A stretch of 40,041 bases of DNA from a virus. The stretch is taken from the IMG/VR virus record IMGVR_UViG_3300027743_000055, positions 1 to 40,041 of that record, one strand, 5' to 3'. Position 1 is the first letter of the stretch. The number at the start of each line of letters is the position of its first letter. The notes under the pieces were generated by a model. The model had not been told where the DNA came from. It ran no database searches and was given only the letters and a program-made list of their open reading frames with translations. Shown here one piece after another: positions 4,829 to 12,900 of this stretch. The translations under genes and the position numbers were made by a program.

Positions 4829-5407
4829 GTGACTGCAACTAAAAAAAGGGAAAACTACCCCGGCAAGCGGGCTAAGACCAGCATTTTCAAGAAGAAGCGG
4901 TTCCTCGAGGAGTTCGCCAAGTGCGCGAATCTCTCGACGGCAGCGAAAATAGCCGGCGTCGATCGCAACATTCACTACAAGTGGCTGGAGGACCCGGAGT
5001 ACGTCGCGGCGTTCGACATAGCCCACAAGGAAGCCTGCGATGCGATCGACCAGGAGATCTACCGGCGAGGCGCGAAGGGGTTCCTCGAGCCGGTCTTCTA
5101 CCAGGGCAAGAAGGTATCTGACGTACGCCGGTATGACTCTACGTTGTTGATTTTCTTCGCCAAAGGGCTGATGCCCGATAAGTACCGCGAGAACTTCAAG
5201 GGCGATATTAACCTGAAGGCCGACGTAACCGCCAACCACAACCTGGACCTAACACGCCTTACAAATGAACAGCTTGAGGCCCTCGACGCCCTCTATACCG
5301 CGGCCGTTGCCGCCGACGGAAGAGCAGCGGAAAGCATTCCTGAACGAACTGTTGAAGGAAAAGCAGAGGAGACAGCGGAACCGGATAGCGGACTACTTCC
5401 AGAGTAG
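4829..5407 (+). CDS. terS: Terminase small subunit, 192 aa
   Basis: The N-terminal HTH has the usual TerS pattern, LSTAAKIAGVDRNIHYKWL. It is followed by the helix DPEYVAAFDIAHKEACDAID, the family feature GFLEPVFYQGKKVSDVRRYD, and LLIFFAKGLMPDKYREN. The C-terminal third is acidic and probably contacts TerL. The subunit forms a ring that recognises the packaging site and hands DNA to the large subunit. The start is GTG at 4829, because the nearby ATG (4827) runs straight into a stop. The gene overlaps terL by about 140 bases in another frame, as is common in this phage group. Confidence 0.85.
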   Translation: MTATKKRENYPGKRAKTSIFKKKRFLEEFAKCANLSTAAKIAGVDRNIHYKWLEDPEYVAAFDIAHKEACDAIDQEIYRRGAKGFLEPVFYQGKKVSDVRRYDSTLLIFFAKGLMPDKYRENFKGDINLKADVTANHNLDLTRLTNEQLEALDALYTAAVAADGRAAESIPERTVEGKAEETAEPDSGLLPE

Positions 5408-6056
5408 CGGTCCATTCCGCAGGGAACTGTATCCAAAGCACTTGCAGTTCTTTGCGGCGGGCGGGCAGCATAAGCCGATGCCCCCGGACTGCCCAGCCGA
5501 CTGCGATGGCTCATCTCACCGTGAACGCTGTTTCATGGCAGCGAACAGAATCGGGAAGACTACAGCGGGCGCGTATGAGATGACGTGCCATCTCACCGGG
5601 AATTATCCTCACTGGTGGGTAGGGAAGCGTTTTGATCGTGCGATCCGGGCGTGGGCTTGTGGTCAGTCGAACAAGACAGTCCGCGAAATCATACAGCGGG
5701 AGTTGCTAGGGCCGGTGAACGCCATGGGTCAGGGTATGATCCCCGGCGACCTGATAACACACCGGACGACAAAGCAGGGCATAGCCGAAGCCACGGATAC
5801 CATCTATGTGAGGCATGCCTCGGGCGGCACATCGTCGGTACAACTCAAGAGCTACGAGGAAGGGCAAGCCAGCTACTTCGGAGCAGCTATCGATCTGGGG
5901 TGGGCGGACGAGGAACCGCCGACCCCTATCTGGACGGAAATGCTCGTTCGTACAATGTCTACTAACGGCCTGTGTTATCTGACCTTTACCCCGCTTCAGG
6001 GTCTGAGTGAAGTGGTGTTGAGTTTCCTCCCGAATGGGATAGTCTCAGGCGGCTAG
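5265..6056 (+). CDS. terL: Terminase large subunit, N-terminal (ATPase) half
   Basis: This is the packaging motor ATPase. The Walker A-like P-loop is MAANRIGKTTAGAYEM (K98), the Walker B region is AIDLGWADEEPP (about 208-219, catalytic Glu), and the coupling motif is YLTFTPLQGLSEVV (238-251). The reading frame then ends after FLPNG plus five foreign residues at TAG 6054-6056, because an antisense HNH gene is inserted. The nuclease domain continues in a separate frame at 7121. All ATPase motifs are intact, so the fragment could fold alone. Whether the two halves assemble into a working motor, or terL is dead in this isolate, cannot be told here. Confidence 0.88.
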   Translation: MNSLRPSTPSIPRPLPPTEEQRKAFLNELLKEKQRRQRNRIADYFQSSGPFRRELYPKHLQFFAAGGQHKPMPPDCPADCDGSSHRERCFMAANRIGKTTAGAYEMTCHLTGNYPHWWVGKRFDRAIRAWACGQSNKTVREIIQRELLGPVNAMGQGMIPGDLITHRTTKQGIAEATDTIYVRHASGGTSSVQLKSYEEGQASYFGAAIDLGWADEEPPTPIWTEMLVRTMSTNGLCYLTFTPLQGLSEVVLSFLPNGIVSGG

Positions 6057-7120
6057 TTTCGCGGCGCGTTTTGCCAGCCATACGAGTAAAGGCATCTTGT
6101 TTTTAGAACTGTTGTTCTCAAGCGATGTAACGCAAAAATTGGCAGATTCGTTTGTGCCTCCTGACGATAAAGGCACGATGTGATCGATTGTGGGCTTCTC
6201 TATCAATTCAGAGGAATAGACGTCCCAGTACATATCCCCTACTCTGTACGATTCGAGGACTTCTTCGATCGATTCGCGGACGTGCTTGAGACGTTTGTCG
6301 CAGCCCATGGAAATCTTCTTGTAGATAGCAGCTATGTAGCGCTTGCGCATGATTTCAGGGTTCGCATCCCGGAAGGCTTTGTTTCGTAAGCGGATCTTGT
6401 CTTTATTCTTTTGATAGTAGGCCGCTCTGTATTCTTTGCTTCGTGGTGTGTACCGACCCTCCTTTTTTAGTTTCTTTGTGTAGGCGCGATTCGCAGCCCG
6501 CGCTTCTTCAGTCGTTCGGGCCTGACTTTGACATTCCTTACAGGGACTAGTTAGGCCCCGACGGCCACTCGCATACGTCACAATGGCGAACTCAGTGGCA
6601 GACTTAAGAGTTTTACATTTACGGCAGGTCTTAGGCCTTTCAAGTCCATGTGGTTCGTGTGGAGTTGGCTGGTAATATTTCTTCTGCCAAGTCCTGTCGC
6701 ACGGTTTGCAGCGGCTGGCTACTTTGCGGCTTTTATTACCCGTTTCGGTCTTATAGTTTCGTACGGAAAACTCAGATATGTCTTTGGTCTGGTTGCAAGA
6801 GATACATAGCTTACTGACCGGGAGGACAGGCACATGAGTGACGCCTCTGGGACCTTTAGGTCTCCCGATCTTCTTTGGCGGTAGTCCAATGCGTCCAAGC
6901 TTGTATTGTTCCCTGTCACACACTATGCATGGCTGTTCCAGTTTCTGGCTGTAATTTCCGCCGCAAGTGGTGTACTTCCGAAGATAGAACGCTGATCTAT
7001 GCTTTACTTCTTTGCAGCGTGAGCACTGCTTCTCAGTTGGAATGTTAGGTACGAGAGTCTTTCCAGGCAATGTGCTTGCAGCGTAACAACATGGCGTTAG
7101 TACGCGGGCTATAGAACTAA
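6041..7120. mobile_element. HNH homing-endonuclease insertion inside terL
   Basis: About 1.08 kb separates the last terL-like codon of the ATPase half (near 6040) from the first of the nuclease half (7121). It is almost filled by one antisense endonuclease gene and is visibly richer in A and T than the terL flanks. Only about 50 bases lie outside that gene on the right and a few on the left. That leaves no room for a group I intron core, and an intein is excluded by orientation. It is best seen as a freestanding homing gene that cut into terL between the ATPase and nuclease domains. Exact borders are uncertain. Confidence 0.7.
6045..7070 (-). CDS. Zinc-finger HNH homing endonuclease, 341 aa
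   Basis: At least six CxxC motifs in tandem make up the first two thirds: CSRCKEVKHRSAFY, CIVCDREQ, CISCNQTKDISEF, CKPCDRTWQKKYY, CRKCKTLKSATEF and CKECQSQ. This is a repeated short finger that probably reads DNA. A basic AAYYQKNKDKIRLRNK-type helix follows. The C-terminal nuclease has the HNH core: IDHIVPLSSGGTNESANF, then LENNSSKNKM. The start is TTG at 7070, as no in-frame ATG lies upstream. Orientation is opposite to terL, base composition is more AT-rich than the phage, and the stop lies within a few bases of the terL break. Together these mark it as recently acquired mobile DNA. Confidence 0.85.
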   Translation of the reverse strand: MPGKTLVPNIPTEKQCSRCKEVKHRSAFYLRKYTTCGGNYSQKLEQPCIVCDREQYKLGRIGLPPKKIGRPKGPRGVTHVPVLPVSKLCISCNQTKDISEFSVRNYKTETGNKSRKVASRCKPCDRTWQKKYYQPTPHEPHGLERPKTCRKCKTLKSATEFAIVTYASGRRGLTSPCKECQSQARTTEEARAANRAYTKKLKKEGRYTPRSKEYRAAYYQKNKDKIRLRNKAFRDANPEIMRKRYIAAIYKKISMGCDKRLKHVRESIEEVLESYRVGDMYWDVYSSELIEKPTIDHIVPLSSGGTNESANFCVTSLENNSSKNKMPLLVWLAKRAAKLAA

Positions 7121-7855
7121 ATGTCCAAATTTATCTGTCAGGCCAGTTGGAACGATTGCGCCCACCTGACTGAAGAAGCCAAGAAGGATCTATACGACTC
7201 GCTACCTCCATACCAGCGTGACGCCAGGTCTAAGGGCATCCCAGTATTAGGGGCTGGAGCCATCTATCCAGTTCCAGAATCGGACGTGGTCGTACCTGAC
7301 ACCGAGATTCCGGACCACTGGCCCCGCTGCTTTGGTTACGATGTCGGCTGGCGCGTAAGTGCAGCCTGCTGGGGGGCGTTGAACCGAGACACCGACACCC
7401 TATATATCTACGCGGAGCACTATCGAGGAGAAGCAGAGCCAGTCGTTCACGCCGAAGCCATCAAGGCGCGAGGCTCGTGGATCAGAGGAGCGATAGATCC
7501 GGCAGCTCGGGGCCGCGGCCAGATCGATGGCAGAAACCTGCTGGATATGTACCGCGACCTGGGTCTAGATTTGGTTCCGGCCCAGAATGCAACAGAGTCG
7601 GGTATCTACGAAATTCTAACGCGGTTGTCCTCCGGCAGACTTAAAATCTTTCGGTCCTGCCAGAACTTCTTGGGTGAGTTTAGACTGTACCGCAGAGATG
7701 AGAAGGGCAAGATTTGTAAGGAAAGGGATCATCTCATGGACGCATGCAGATATATGATCTCTTGCTTGCACGAGATCCTATCCACCAAGCCGGCCCCGAA
7801 GAAGCAGAAGCCGGTAGAAGAAAGGCGATTTGGCGCGACGGGTTGGATGGGATAA
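7121..7855 (+). CDS. terL: Terminase large subunit, C-terminal (nuclease) half
   Basis: This continues the large terminase. SKFICQASWNDCAHLTEEAK and PPYQRDARSKGIPVLGAGAI are the linker features of P22/T7-like TerL proteins. The RNase-H-type nuclease follows: FGYDVGW (D74), GAIDPAARGRGQIDG (D126), and ERDHLMDACRYMI (D203/D207), so all metal-binding acids are present. It begins with its own ATG at 7121, preceded directly by an in-frame TAA and without a good ribosome site. Expression as a separate domain would therefore be weak. Its stop is three bases before the first unit of the 36-bp repeat array, in the same direction. Confidence 0.85.
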   Translation: MSKFICQASWNDCAHLTEEAKKDLYDSLPPYQRDARSKGIPVLGAGAIYPVPESDVVVPDTEIPDHWPRCFGYDVGWRVSAACWGALNRDTDTLYIYAEHYRGEAEPVVHAEAIKARGSWIRGAIDPAARGRGQIDGRNLLDMYRDLGLDLVPAQNATESGIYEILTRLSSGRLKIFRSCQNFLGEFRLYRRDEKGKICKERDHLMDACRYMISCLHEILSTKPAPKKQKPVEERRFGATGWMG

Positions 7856-7858
7856 ACT

Positions 7859-8463
7859 GAGCGAGCCGTGCTTTGGGAGAGAACCGAGAATAACGAGCGA
7901 GCCGCGCCCGACGAGAGTACCGAGGTGGATGAGCGAGCCGCGTGCGCCGAGAGCACCGAAGCAAAAGAGCGAGCCGAATTGCCGGAGAGTACCGATGTTT
8001 TGGAGCGAGCCGTTTCCCCTGAGAGTACCGAAATACGGGAGCGAGCCAGTGCGCCGGAGAGTACCGACATGCCGGAGCGAGCCGTGCAACGAGAGAGCAC
8101 CGGACTAATCGAGCGAGCCGTGACACGAGAGAGTGCCGACATAATGGAGCGAGCCGTATTATCAGAGAGTACCGGATTAGGTGAGCGAGCCATCCAGCGG
8201 GAGAGTACCGTCCTTTGCGGAGCGAGCCGGATTCGCAGAGAGAACCGGAACAACTGAGCGAGCCGCGCTTGTCGAGAGTACCGTGCTGTGGGAGCGAGCC
8301 GCGCCGATGGAGAGTACCGTGAAAGATGAGCGAGCCGCATCCTGTGAGAGTACCGTCGTGAGTGAGCGAGCCGTCATGGTCGAGAGAACCGGAAACACCG
8401 AGCGAGCCGCGTGCGCCGAGAGCACCGAAACAACCGAGCGAGCCGAATTATGAGAGAGTACCG
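7859..8463 (+). repeat. TIGR-like array: 17 units of 36 bp, two alternating repeats with variable octamer spacers
   Basis: Each unit is gagcgagccg - 8 variable bases - gagagtaccg - 8 variable bases. The first decamer is perfect in 15 of 17 copies (two end in a). The second is exact in 10; the others change base 6 or 7. Spacer pairs in order: tgctttgg/agaataac; cgcccgac/aggtggat; cgtgcgcc/aagcaaaa; aattgccg/atgttttg; tttcccct/aaatacgg; gtgcgccg/acatgccg; tgcaacga/gactaatc; tgacacga/acataatg; tattatca/gattaggt; tccagcgg/tcctttgcg; gattcgca/gaacaact; cgcttgtc/tgctgtgg; cgccgatg/tgaaagat; catcctgt/tcgtgagt; tcatggtc/gaaacacc; cgtgcgcc/aaacaacc; aattatga/taaagggt. The period of 36 and two spacers per unit match TIGR arrays, whose 36-nt RNAs guide Tas proteins. 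One spacer has nine bases (8211-8219), which breaks every reading frame. Confidence 0.88.
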
Positions 8464-8483
8464 TAAAGGGTGAGCGTACAAAT

Positions 8484-9287
8484 GTGAGCACAAATATCGA
8501 GGCTGTCCAAAAACTGTCGCGGGACCTTCGCGCCGCCGCCAAGCTGATGGGTGTGCGCGAGGCCCGTTATTTTGTGGATACGTATTACGACTTACAGGAT
8601 TACAGGATCGCAGCCGCCAACCAGCAGCGCAAACTGCTCGAGGGTGAGGAGCCTTCTGAATTCATCACCTGGCTCAACGGGCAGCTGGTGGTGCTCGAGG
8701 GGCAGATCAAAGCCGTGCTCGACAAGTGGAGCGCCGCGCAGCCGATGGGCGAGTGGAGCCGGAATATCGTCGGGATCGGCCCAGTCATCGCATCAGGATT
8801 GATTGCCAACATCGACATTACAAAAGCGCCGACCGTAGGGCATATCTGGCGGTTCGCCGGCCTGGATCCTACCTGTAAATGGGAGAAGGGCCAGAAGCGG
8901 CCCTGGAACGCTTCGCTGAAACGGCTGTGTTGGCTGATGGGCGAGTCGTTCGTCAAGGTGAGCGGCAACCCCAATGACGTGTACGGCAAACTCTACCTGG
9001 AACGAAAGGCTTACGAGCAGAAGCGCAACGATAACGGCGATCTGGCGGCAACCGCGGCCGAAAGGCTGAAGCAGGCGAAGCAGAAGAAATTGGATGCCGG
9101 CCTGATCGAACTGTTCGAATCCGGCCGGTTACCGGCAATGGCGCTGCACGAACGGGCCAAACGGTGGTCAGTGAAAGTATTTCTTTCACACTGGCATGCT
9201 GAAGCATTCAGACAGCACTATGGGACGGAGCCACCTTTCCCCTATCCCATCGCCCATCTCGGCCACGCGCATCTCATCAAACCATAA
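8484..9287 (+). CDS. tas: Tas-like protein: Nop / IS110 C-terminal (Transposase_20-like) domain without nuclease, 267 aa
   Basis: A helical N-terminal half includes a coiled-coil segment (about residues 35-90: QQRKLLEGEEPSEFITWL, then QLVVLEGQIKAVLDKW). The helix-hairpin-helix core is NIVGIGPVIASGLIANID (94-111), then IWRFAGLDPTCKWEKG (121-136), then a basic helix-rich C-terminus (HERAKRWSVKVFLSHWHAEA, 222-241). This is the pattern of the IS110 C-terminal domain and, structurally, of Nop domains of box C/D RNPs. There is no RuvC DEDD or HNH motif. With the array directly upstream it fits a Nop-only Tas that binds array RNAs. GTG 8484 is the chosen start, with aagggtgag from the last repeat as possible ribosome site. 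An orphan IS110-type fragment is the alternative. Confidence 0.82.
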   Translation: MSTNIEAVQKLSRDLRAAAKLMGVREARYFVDTYYDLQDYRIAAANQQRKLLEGEEPSEFITWLNGQLVVLEGQIKAVLDKWSAAQPMGEWSRNIVGIGPVIASGLIANIDITKAPTVGHIWRFAGLDPTCKWEKGQKRPWNASLKRLCWLMGESFVKVSGNPNDVYGKLYLERKAYEQKRNDNGDLAATAAERLKQAKQKKLDAGLIELFESGRLPAMALHERAKRWSVKVFLSHWHAEAFRQHYGTEPPFPYPIAHLGHAHLIKP

Positions 9288-9411: not shown

Positions 9412-9723
9412 ATGGAACAAGCCACCCAATACCCCACAGAGAAGCGTGACCGGGAGTACAAGTCAGTCAGCATCCCGTTCGCAATCTCGGAGATCGACGC
9501 AGACGACGTCTTATTAATAAGGTTAGACCGCAAAGATCCGGCACGCCGCAAGATCATGAAAGCGATCCAAGCGGCGCTCGAAGCGGACCAGCGGACGGAC
9601 GAAGCGACACGGGCGAAAGCGTACGCGCAAGAGAAGCTCCCGGACGACTGGAGACGAAAGATGCCGGCACGCGACCCGAACGATCCGAACGAAACCAGGG
9701 CCTACCGGAAGCCGGTGAGCTAG
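9412..9723 (+). CDS. Hypothetical charged protein, 103 aa
   Basis: Begins at ATG after aggcaaaaggagtctaagg, which supplies a good ribosome site. It has a small domain with YKSVSIPFAISEIDADDVLL, then a long charged helical tail rich in Arg, Asp and Glu (DPARRKIMKAIQAALEAD), ending DPNDPNETRAYRKPVS. No family is recognised. It follows the Tas-like gene after 124 bases, so it could be co-transcribed, but there is no evidence of a shared function. Bases 9288-9411 hold no gene. Confidence 0.6.
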   Translation: MEQATQYPTEKRDREYKSVSIPFAISEIDADDVLLIRLDRKDPARRKIMKAIQAALEADQRTDEATRAKAYAQEKLPDDWRRKMPARDPNDPNETRAYRKPVS

Positions 9724-9953: not shown

Positions 9954-12900
9954 GTGCTACAGGATACTGCTAGTTCTCACGCTGGCGCTATCCTCCTGCG
10001 TGGTACGGCAGCAGAGCATCACGAATACAGTAGGTCCGTTGGCCCAACGTCCCACAACCTGCGAGCCGGGAAGCCAGTACACGGTACTCGACGCGGTACC
10101 CGGAACCAACCTGCATATCTGTTATGCGCTTAACAAATGGAAGGCAATCGCGTACGTAGCCGGCGACACCGGAGCCTTACGAATTAACTGTGACGCTGAC
10201 CCCTGCACGGCGGATATCGCGCCGAACGTCATCCCCAGCCTGAACAACCAGCCGAACCAGTGGCTCAATGCGAACGACTTCAGCAAGGCCATCCTGACGG
10301 CCCCGGTCAGAGTCGAAGACGAAGACCCAGCCGAATGCAACAGTCAGCTACCGGAGATGTACTTCAACCGAATCGCCAAGCTGATGATGGTGTGTACGGA
10401 GCCGAACAAGTGGACCGTGCTGAACGCGACTCCCGCGGCCCAGGACAAGCCTCCTATTAAGAAGGCCCAGGTCAGTGACGTGGACTACGCCGGCGCACAG
10501 ATCCTGATCCAGACCGAAGGCATTCCGGCAGACGCGAAGCTGGCGGTAGCGTACTCGCCCAACCCAGCCGAACTGGCCGACGGAGCGATCACGGCGCAGA
10601 CGCCGGTACGGGGATCGAACGGCCGCGAAGACTGGTACGACCAGTCGATCAACAACGCGCCGGCCAACTCTAAGGTGTACATCCGCCCGTTTATGAGCGG
10701 TGGAGGAGCAGTTAACAGTTACTGGAAGTGCGCTAACGGAGCCATATCGCAGGGAGAACTGGTGGGGCTGACCTGCGAACCGGGGATAGACTGGCCGTAC
10801 TTCCTGACCACCGCAATTCCCGGCCCCCCAGACACCAGCTACCCGAACGGCACGTACCCAGCGGTAGCCATGGGCGCAACATATATATATCCGTCATTCG
10901 GCACGCTGACCGAAGGCGTGAACCTGTTCACCGTTAGTAAGGACTGCTCCGACGTGAACGAGAAGTTGGCCGCCGCGGCCAAGGCTACACAAGATTTTCA
11001 GGTATTGCTCCCAGTGAATGTTGATTGTCAGTCGATTGAACTCCCCTTGAAGCCTGGAGGCGTGACGGGTGTAATTCGCTCTAGCGCCTCCGATTTATCC
11101 CTGCCGGCTCCTGGCACGCGACCCCAACCGCGGCACCAACCGCACATGGCTCGAGTGGTAGGCAGGTTAACCGCGGTTAACACTCATGGCTGGAGATTCT
11201 TCGGGATAGAGTTCATCACCAGGGAGATCATCCCAACGGGAGACACGCCATCATTCACGATCGTCCGAAGCGAACGAAACTCAGGAAGCGCCAACATCTG
11301 GAGACTGACACTGGACAGGCCGCATGGACTACTAGACTCGGACAAGGTGATGTTGAGCGCAGTCGCCAGGCTCAACAACACCTGCAAGCCGGGGGCGGCC
11401 GCGATCTACACAATCCCGTCACAGACAGTGGTCACAGTGGATTGTGCGGGCGCGGTCGTTCCCAGTACGCCGGATACCTCGAGCGGAAGAGCGATAGCCG
11501 GAAGCATGGTGCAACGGATTCAGAACGCTGTACCAGGCTCGGCCTCCTGCGAGGGAGGCGTACTGATCTCCCTTGCAACCGGGATGGTGAGCGGGTTAGA
11601 TAAGGATACGGTGATCGTCATCAACGGCTCGGAAGGGCTGACGATCAATGGGAATTGGCGCGTGACTCCGGTAACGCCGGGAAGCTTCTGCTTACAGAAC
11701 AGCACGCACATCACCGGACTGTACGTCGCCAACTCGGCATATTATGTGGTTGATACGAATGTACGTACGCTAGTCAGCCTCGAGCAGAACACCAGCGACA
11801 TATGGATAGACAGGTGCATTATTAGAGGGCGCGGCTTCCCAACGCGGGTGTTAACCGGAGTCCTCCTCCTCGGCTCCCAGAGCGGCGTCCTCAACTCCCG
11901 CTTTGAGAACATCGAAGGCTGGCAGTCCGTTGATCCCGTCACGAAGGATAAGAAGATCTACACGACAAGCTATTTTCTTACCACGCCGATTGCAGTGGAC
12001 TTCAGCTACGGCAAGAACCAGACCATCCAGAACAACTCCATAACAGGACACGGCATCCTGCTCTTCGCCCAGCAGGGCGACGGCAAGGCAACGAACCACG
12101 TCGAGAACGTACTGATCCGCGGCAACACTATATATAGTCCGTTCAAATACATGGCCGGCCACAAGGACAATGTACTCGGCCTGTACTACTCGCACCGGCA
12201 CGCACTGGAACTGAAGCGCGGCAAGCAGATCACGATCGAGGACAACCAGTTTACCGGCGGCTGGGCCGACAACCTGACCGCGGGCTGGGCAGCGGTGATG
12301 ACGATCCGCGGAGCGGTGGAGCCGGGGCCGGCGCCGGAAGAGCAGAACACCATCCGGGATATCATCTTCAGGCGCAATTTTATGCGCGACGTCGCAGCCG
12401 GGATCAATATCACTAACTATAATGATGGCGGCCCACTGGCCAACCAGACCAAGCGAATTGCCATCGAGGACAACGTGATCTCGGGTATCGACTGGTTCAG
12501 TTACCGTTCGCAGCCGTCAGCGCAAGCCGGCCCTAATAAGGTGAGCAGCGCGACCGGAGGTGGCGGGATGAGCCTCGGGGTAGGTAACAGCCTGACGGTC
12601 AGGAATAACCTTATCTATTACCCGATCGGTTCCGGCCCCCGCAACCTGCTCGTCTTCCGCGGCTCGCACACGCGCATCCTTAATAATGTAAGCTCCCATA
12701 ACGAGTTCAATGGTGGTGGCATTTACGCCAGCCCTGGAACGGATGGCATCCCCGCGGTCAGTTCAGGCACACTCAATGCGACACGCTGGAACAACCTGAC
12801 ACAAGTCTCTGGAACACCCGATCCCTATAGTGCCTTCAAAGGAAACGTGCTCACACCAGGCACGCAGAATAATTACAATTACAATTCACTCGACCCTACG

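What the first reader, a model, noticed from the sequence alone, without database searches (positions are those of the whole stretch)
7859..9287. A TIGR-Tas system in a P22-like phage
Seen: 17 tandem 36-bp units, each with two different conserved decamers and two variable octamers, immediately followed in the same direction by a 267-aa protein with an IS110-C-terminal/Nop-like core. Known: TIGR-Tas systems (Faure and colleagues, 2025) consist of tandem interspaced guide RNA arrays, processed to 36-nt RNAs with two spacers, plus a Nop-domain Tas protein, and occur in phages. Inferred: this is such a system, here inside a P22-like late region between terL and surface-protein genes.
Basis: partly seen in the sequence, partly recalled or inferred. 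Interest (0 to 1): 0.96.

Follow-up and report, generated by a model that had tools for sequence, protein, structure and literature searches.

The report
Phage RNA-guided TIGR-TasA beside packaging gene
A P22-like phage carries a recently discovered RNA-guided DNA-binding system (TIGR with a nuclease-less Tas protein) right after its DNA-packaging gene, and in a related phage pair a different RNA-guided system (VIPR) is swapped into that slot, which suggests both are tools for phages to fight each other.

Summary
Window 7859-8471 holds 17 tandem units (16 of 36 bp, one of 37): edge repeat GAGCGAGCC(G/A), 8-nt spacer A, loop repeat GAGAGNACCG, 8-nt spacer B; 17 matches against 0.22 expected by chance. 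The next gene (8484-9287) is a Tas protein: sequence matches to solved TasR (E 1e-13) and TasH (4e-10), predicted fold Z 15-17 to them and 12 to IS621, no nuclease domain. It is therefore a dual-repeat TIGR-TasA locus in a P22-like phage. Arrays occur in all 17 viral tas relatives of about 69% identity or more and in no held tas-less relative.

New here: the cassette lies in a terL-adjacent slot. Two sibling phages are 91% identical up to the terL stop and 86% beyond the cassette, but one holds TIGR-TasA and the other a VIPR system, a different RNA-guided system reported to repress rival phages. That VIPR's first guide spells the terL motif RLYRRDEKG of related phages, while its own terL is recoded there. 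The slot thus looks like a place for interchangeable inter-phage interference cargo. TIGR spacer targets were searched with mispaired controls: suggestive at best (12 against 5.8, 6 of 300 shuffles), not replicated. RNA processing and targets remain untested.

The parts
7859..8471 (+). TIGR array, 17 units: edge GAGCGAGCC(G/A) + 8-nt spacer A + loop GAGAGNACCG + 8-nt spacer B
   Evidence: 17 pattern hits against 0.22 expected
8472..8480 (+). degenerate terminal edge repeat GAGCGTACA
   Evidence: sequence
8484..9287 (+). tasA: Nop-domain Tas protein, 267 aa, no nuclease domain
   Evidence: phmmer/hmmsearch to 9mty TasR and 21kl TasH; fold Z 16.7 TasH, 15.1 TasR, 12.0 IS621; PF02371 weak
7121..7855 (+). 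terL C-terminal (nuclease) half, directly upstream of the array; left border of the cassette slot
   Evidence: PF17289 E 1e-11; slot border in siblings
5265..6056 (+). terL N-terminal (ATPase) half
   Evidence: PF03237 E 8e-16
9412..9723 (+). small gene downstream of the cassette; in L043/L044, which have neither array nor tas, its homologue directly follows intact terL

Best explanation
The locus is a TIGR-TasA system. The array is transcribed with tasA, probably from the late operon, since it begins 3 nt after the terL stop. The transcript is cut inside the edge repeats into 36-nt tigRNAs, and a TasA dimer holds each one through box D (GA) and box C (CCG) of the edge and loop repeats. Spacer A pairs with one strand and spacer B with the other strand of an adjacent 16-18 bp DNA site. 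TasA has no nuclease domain, so it would bind, bend and block the target rather than cut it. The most likely use is silencing of genes of competing phages or other mobile elements in the same cell. Shown here: array, Tas homology and fold, lack of nuclease domain, linkage of array and tas across relatives, location in a swappable slot beside terL. Known from other TIGR systems (PMC12045711): RNA processing and the two-strand pairing rule. Inferred: late co-transcription, repression without cutting, and rival phages as the targets. The confidence given is for the identification as TIGR-TasA working by guided DNA binding; for rival phages as the targets it is about 0.55.
For: Array plan and significance. 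Tas homology: TasR E 1.3e-13, TasH 3.7e-10, IS621 1.7e-5. Fold: Z 16.7 and 15.1 to TasH and TasR, starting after their nuclease domains. All 17 viral tas relatives of about 69% identity or more (L002-L018) carry an adjacent array, and no held relative without tas carries one. More distant loci (L053-L062, L019) mostly have 36-nt arrays of their own type. The third base of box C changes together in edge and loop: G/G in the window group, A/A in L018, L054, L055 and L058. Slot: L041 and L042 are 91% identical to the last base of terL and alike again after the cassette (86%), but L042 holds TIGR-tas and L041 VIPR (Vipr E 6.9e-8). VIPR represses competing phages (PMC13142463), and L041's first VIPR guide matches terL of relatives.
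Against: No natural target of the window's spacers was found. Related phages show only a weak excess of matches under the documented rule (12 pairs against 5.8, 6 of 300 shuffles), not repeated in a smaller independent set, and an exact search of the viral collection was at chance. No promoter or + strand terminator was predicted around the array. Function by slot rests on one VIPR/TIGR swap. Faure et al. saw no phage protection with TasR in E. coli.
Confidence: 0.93

Rival explanations
1. TIGR-TasA here regulates the phage's own genes or aids its integration or packaging (self-targeting), rather than acting on rivals.
For: It lies in the late region next to terL; Faure et al. raise gene regulation and help to integrases as options (PMC12045711). 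The window also encodes an integrase.
Against: No spacer pair matches the window's own genome better than mispaired controls. Spacers turn over fast between phages with 86-95% identical Tas proteins, unlike a fixed self-regulator.
Confidence: 0.15
2. The ORF is a degenerate IS110-type transposase and the repeats are a passive tandem repeat or part of a repetitive coding sequence.
For: PHROG 4285 is labelled transposase; PF02371 matches weakly; open frames of 129 aa (+) and 203 aa (-) cross the array.
Against: Better matches to Tas than to IS110 by sequence and fold. No N-terminal DEDD domain. The Tas sequence is conserved in many phages together with arrays whose spacers differ. Units of 35 or 37 nt break any reading frame.
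Confidence: 0.03
3. The cassette is mainly a mobile element that uses terL as an insertion niche (with neighbouring HNH genes), and any guide function serves its own homing.
For: It occurs at the terL split point in L004-L011 and after terL in others; HNH genes lie near terL halves.
Against: Spacer pairs do not match terL genes clearly better than mispaired controls; TasA has no nuclease to start homing.
Confidence: 0.1

Closest known systems
TIGR-Tas, TasA type with dual-repeat array (Faure et al. 2025, PMC12045711)
   Same: Alternating edge and loop repeats of about 10 nt, spacers A and B, 36-nt unit, adjacent solo-Nop protein, phage location, box C/D co-variation between edge and loop.
   Different: Box C ends in G in the window group (A in more distant relatives and in published TasR); array is upstream of tas, starts with a full edge 3 nt after terL, and has no predicted terminator; slot shared with VIPR.
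SpTIGR-TasH (Salicola phage CGphi29 locus of Faure et al.; solved TasH structures PDB 21kl, 9vzx, 9w04)
   Same: 8+8-nt spacers in SpTIGR; solved TasH is the best structural match (Z 16.7).
   Different: The window protein lacks the N-terminal HNH domain.
IS110/IS621 bridge-RNA recombinases
   Same: Shared RNA-binding Nop-like domain (Z 12).
   Different: No DEDD domain, and an array instead of a single bridge RNA.
VIPR (2026 preprint, PMC13142463)
   Same: Phage-borne, one small protein plus guide array, binds DNA without a nuclease; occupies the same slot in related phage L041.
   Different: Unrelated RAMP-like protein and a GGY/NN non-contiguous guide code.

Membership tests
TIGR-Tas | Array of two different alternating 8-12-nt repeats with two short spacers per unit | tested here: met
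   17 units, 10-nt repeats, 8-nt spacers
TIGR-Tas | Adjacent protein with the Tas Nop domain | tested here: met
   Sequence to TasR/TasH and fold Z 15-17
TIGR-Tas | Box C/D motifs of edge and loop vary together between loci | tested here: met
   CCG/CCG in the window group, CCA/CCA in L018, L054, L055, L058; L060 is mixed (TCA edge, CCA loop)
TIGR-Tas | Processing into 36-nt tigRNAs bound by Tas | not testable with these tools
   Unit length fits; no RNA data
TIGR-Tas | Spacers A and B pair with opposite strands of adjacent DNA | tested here: inconclusive
   12 pairs against 5.8 expected in related phages, 6 of 300 shuffles; not replicated
TIGR-Tas | Truncated edges at both ends and downstream terminator (typical, not defining) | tested here: inconclusive
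   Degenerate last edge present, first edge full, no terminator predicted on the + strand
TasA subtype of TIGR-Tas | Solo Nop domain without RuvC or HNH | tested here: met
   Only the PF02371 region found above noise; model aligns to TasH/TasR/IS621 only after their nuclease domains
IS110 transposase | N-terminal DEDD (RuvC-like) domain | tested here: not met
   The 267-aa protein corresponds to IS621 residues 125 onward; too short to hold the domain
CRISPR-Cas | Single repeat of 25-36 nt and cas genes | tested here: not met
   Two alternating 10-nt repeats, and no Cas match in the array-tas cassette

The most novel reading that the evidence does not exclude
A terL-adjacent slot in P22-like phages carries interchangeable nuclease-less RNA-guided systems (TIGR-TasA or VIPR) that silence packaging or other late genes of close rival phages, the carrier being protected by recoding of the targeted site. 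This would give TIGR-TasA a natural role and a target class.
Probability: 0.4. Interest if true: 0.85.

Novelty: new member of a known kind. Interest (0 to 1): 0.62.

Why it matters
The function and natural targets of TIGR systems, above all of the common nuclease-less TasA, are an open question (PMC12045711). Here the system sits in a defined slot, in a family of sister phages with fast-changing spacers, and is swapped cleanly for VIPR, whose role against rival phages is experimentally supported. That makes the inter-phage role directly testable and gives a set of about 200 spacer pairs and related phage genomes to test it on.

Tried and rejected
Target searches: 185-205 spacer pairs against 0.5-0.7 Mb of related phages, under four pairing orders and gaps from -2 to 3, with mispaired controls. 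Only the published order with gaps 0-2 shows a nominal excess, and it did not replicate. Window pairs against their own genome, and all pairs against terL genes: at or near chance. One pair of the Halomonas locus against 90 genomes of that genus: none. Intron RNAs in terL: no Rfam match. A single-sequence model of the Vipr-like protein was too poor to use, so it was identified by profile search instead. A passive-repeat or coding reading of the array was rejected on frame-breaking units and conservation with tas.

Full report
Observation. The array is real and as described. Seventeen tandem units run from 7859 to 8471 on the + strand; sixteen are 36 bp and one (at 8183) is 37 bp. Each has an edge repeat GAGCGAGCC followed by G (15) or A (2), an 8-nt spacer, a loop repeat GAGAG[T/A/C][A/G]CC followed by G (17), and a second 8-nt spacer. 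The edge-N9-loop pattern with up to three mismatches occurs 17 times in the window, all in the array, against 0.22 in shuffles. A degenerate edge ends the array at 8480 and the 267-aa ORF starts at 8484. The array begins 3 nt after the stop codon of the C-terminal half of terL (sequence).

The protein. Against solved structures by sequence, the single protein finds TasR (9mty, E 7e-12) and TasH (21kl, E 3e-8); the profile of 16 relatives finds TasR 1.3e-13, TasH 3.7e-10, IS621 1.7e-5 and ISCro4 1.5e-3. The predicted structure (mean pLDDT 78.7) matches TasH (Z 16.7, 225 residues), TasR (Z 15.1, 185 residues) and IS621 (Z 12.0) (Foldseek ranks 1-9 are all TasH or TasR). The best unrelated rows are at Z 7. 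The aligned part of each known protein begins after its nuclease domain, so the window protein is of the solo-Nop TasA type. Pfam sees only a weak IS110 C-terminal match and PHROGs call the family 'transposase'.

Relatives. Eighteen viral loci encode relatives of 47-95% identity. All 17 of about 69% identity or more carry the same kind of array beside tas, upstream except in L018, where a 50-unit array lies downstream. A scan of both strands of 50 sequences found such arrays only in tas-bearing loci. Bacterial genome loci with tas of 39-57% identity, from Acidobacteriota, Halomonas, Propionivibrio and others, have 36-nt arrays of related type where the array could be parsed. The third base of box C differs between lineages but mostly agrees between edge and loop: G and G in the window group, A and A in L018, L054, L055 and L058, with L060 mixed. 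This fits binding by a symmetric dimer, as Faure et al. argue (PMC12045711).

How the arrays change. Exact spacer units are shared between arrays of different phages far above chance (13 identical spacers A and 15 identical spacers B across arrays, against 0 and 0.7 in column shuffles), while most units differ although Tas is 86-95% identical in the closest group. Some units share one half only: window units at 7931 and 8400 share spacer A exactly and differ at 3 of 8 positions in spacer B; spacer B GATTAGGT occurs in the window, L003 and L011 with different spacers A. Turnover thus works at unit and half-unit level. No adaptation gene was noticed beside the array.

Genome setting. The phage is P22-like (portal E 1e-174, coat E 2e-40). 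TerL is split into two ORFs in the window and most relatives, intact in L043, L044 and L050. In L043 and L044, which have no TIGR cassette there, intact terL is directly followed by a homologue of window ORF 9412-9723 (40% over 85 aa), so the cassette is optional.

A swap with VIPR. Related phages L041 and L042 are 91% identical over 674 nt up to the end of terL and alike again (86% over 92 nt) from L041:12384 and L042:12278. Between these borders L042 holds TIGR array plus tas, whereas L041 holds GGY/NN pentamer arrays, a 188-aa protein and a 173-aa protein. The tandem score of the GGY array is 15 against at most 5 in shuffles. The 188-aa family matches the SUSP1 Vipr protein (36pp, E 6.9e-8), and 36 of 80 viral relatives have strong GGY arrays nearby against 0 of 80 shuffled controls. 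L041 is therefore most likely a VIPR locus (PMC13142463): a phage system that binds DNA under a one-base-skip code, represses transcription and is aimed mostly at competing elements.

What that VIPR aims at. Read with the one-base-skip rule, the first L041 guide is TAx CGx CTx TAx CGx CGx GAx GAx AAx GGx. It fits the terL codons for (H/F)RLYRRDEKG in related phages with the skipped base at the wobble position: 1 mismatch of 20 in L045, L046 and L049, 2 in L002, L043 and L044, 3 in the window, but 6 in its own terL. None of 300 dinucleotide-order shuffles did as well in 0.98 Mb of related phage DNA. In its own terL the three arginine codons that line up with CGx are AGA/AGG and the leucine codon is TTG; where the protein is unchanged, only such first-position synonymous changes can escape this code. 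Outside the site AGR makes up 5 of 16 arginine codons and TTR 0 of 19 leucine codons. This is a single guide, so it is strong but not conclusive.

Targets of the TIGR spacers. Under the published rule (spacer A followed by the reverse complement of spacer B, gap 0-2; this order is my reading of the 8-nt 3' overhangs reported in PMC12045711), 12 of 205 pairs hit related phage DNA with at most one mismatch, against 5.8 in mispaired controls (6 of 300 shuffles reach 12). Other pairing orders show no clear excess. An independent, smaller set gave 3 against 2.2, and unrelated phages and VIPR phages showed none. I treat this as a lead only. The window's own genome is not targeted above chance.

Verdict. 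Membership in TIGR-Tas (TasA, dual-repeat) is firmly supported by array and protein, with RNA processing and DNA binding untested. The mechanism is inferred from solved relatives. The biological role, interference with competing phages, is the most likely but rests on the slot shared with VIPR and on weak target statistics. Novelty of the locus itself: a new member of a known kind; whether this contig is among the loci listed by Faure et al. could not be checked. The swap of TIGR for VIPR is not mentioned in the held VIPR text; I did not search the TIGR paper for it.

Noticed in passing
L041:10741-12383: A VIPR locus (GGY/NN arrays, Vipr homologue 10864-11430, likely accessory protein 11862-12383) sits in exactly the slot where related phage L042 has TIGR-TasA.
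   Followed up: yes
L041:10770-10844 and L041:10556: The first VIPR guide matches the terL motif RLYRRDEKG of related phages in codon register (1 mismatch of 20 in L045/L046/L049), while the carrier's own terL has 6 mismatches there through AGA/AGG/TTG codons and one Lys-to-Arg change.
   Followed up: partly
window 5265-7855: TerL is encoded as separate ATPase and nuclease ORFs. The window has an endonuclease VII/HNH-like gene on the minus strand between them; L041 has an HTH-like gene there, L003/L042 only a frame change, L004-L011 the TIGR cassette and further genes; L043/L044/L050 have intact terL. No intron family matches in the window.
   Followed up: partly
L018:881-2701: A TIGR array of about 50 units downstream of tas with CCA box C, containing exact unit duplicates and units sharing only one spacer.
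   Followed up: partly
L058:9160-9600: By eye, a ParB-like gene follows tas in a Bryobacterales genome, like the TasA-ParB operons mentioned by Faure et al. (no family search run).
   Followed up: no
L232:1093-1271: Pseudomonas phage LESphi2 has GGY/NN arrays upstream of a distant homologue of the L041 Vipr protein, annotated as hypothetical.
   Followed up: no
L055:10001-10795: The tas reading in Acidobacteriaceae bacterium KBS 96 contains one TAG stop in the matched frame, so it may be a pseudogene; its array is downstream.
   Followed up: no
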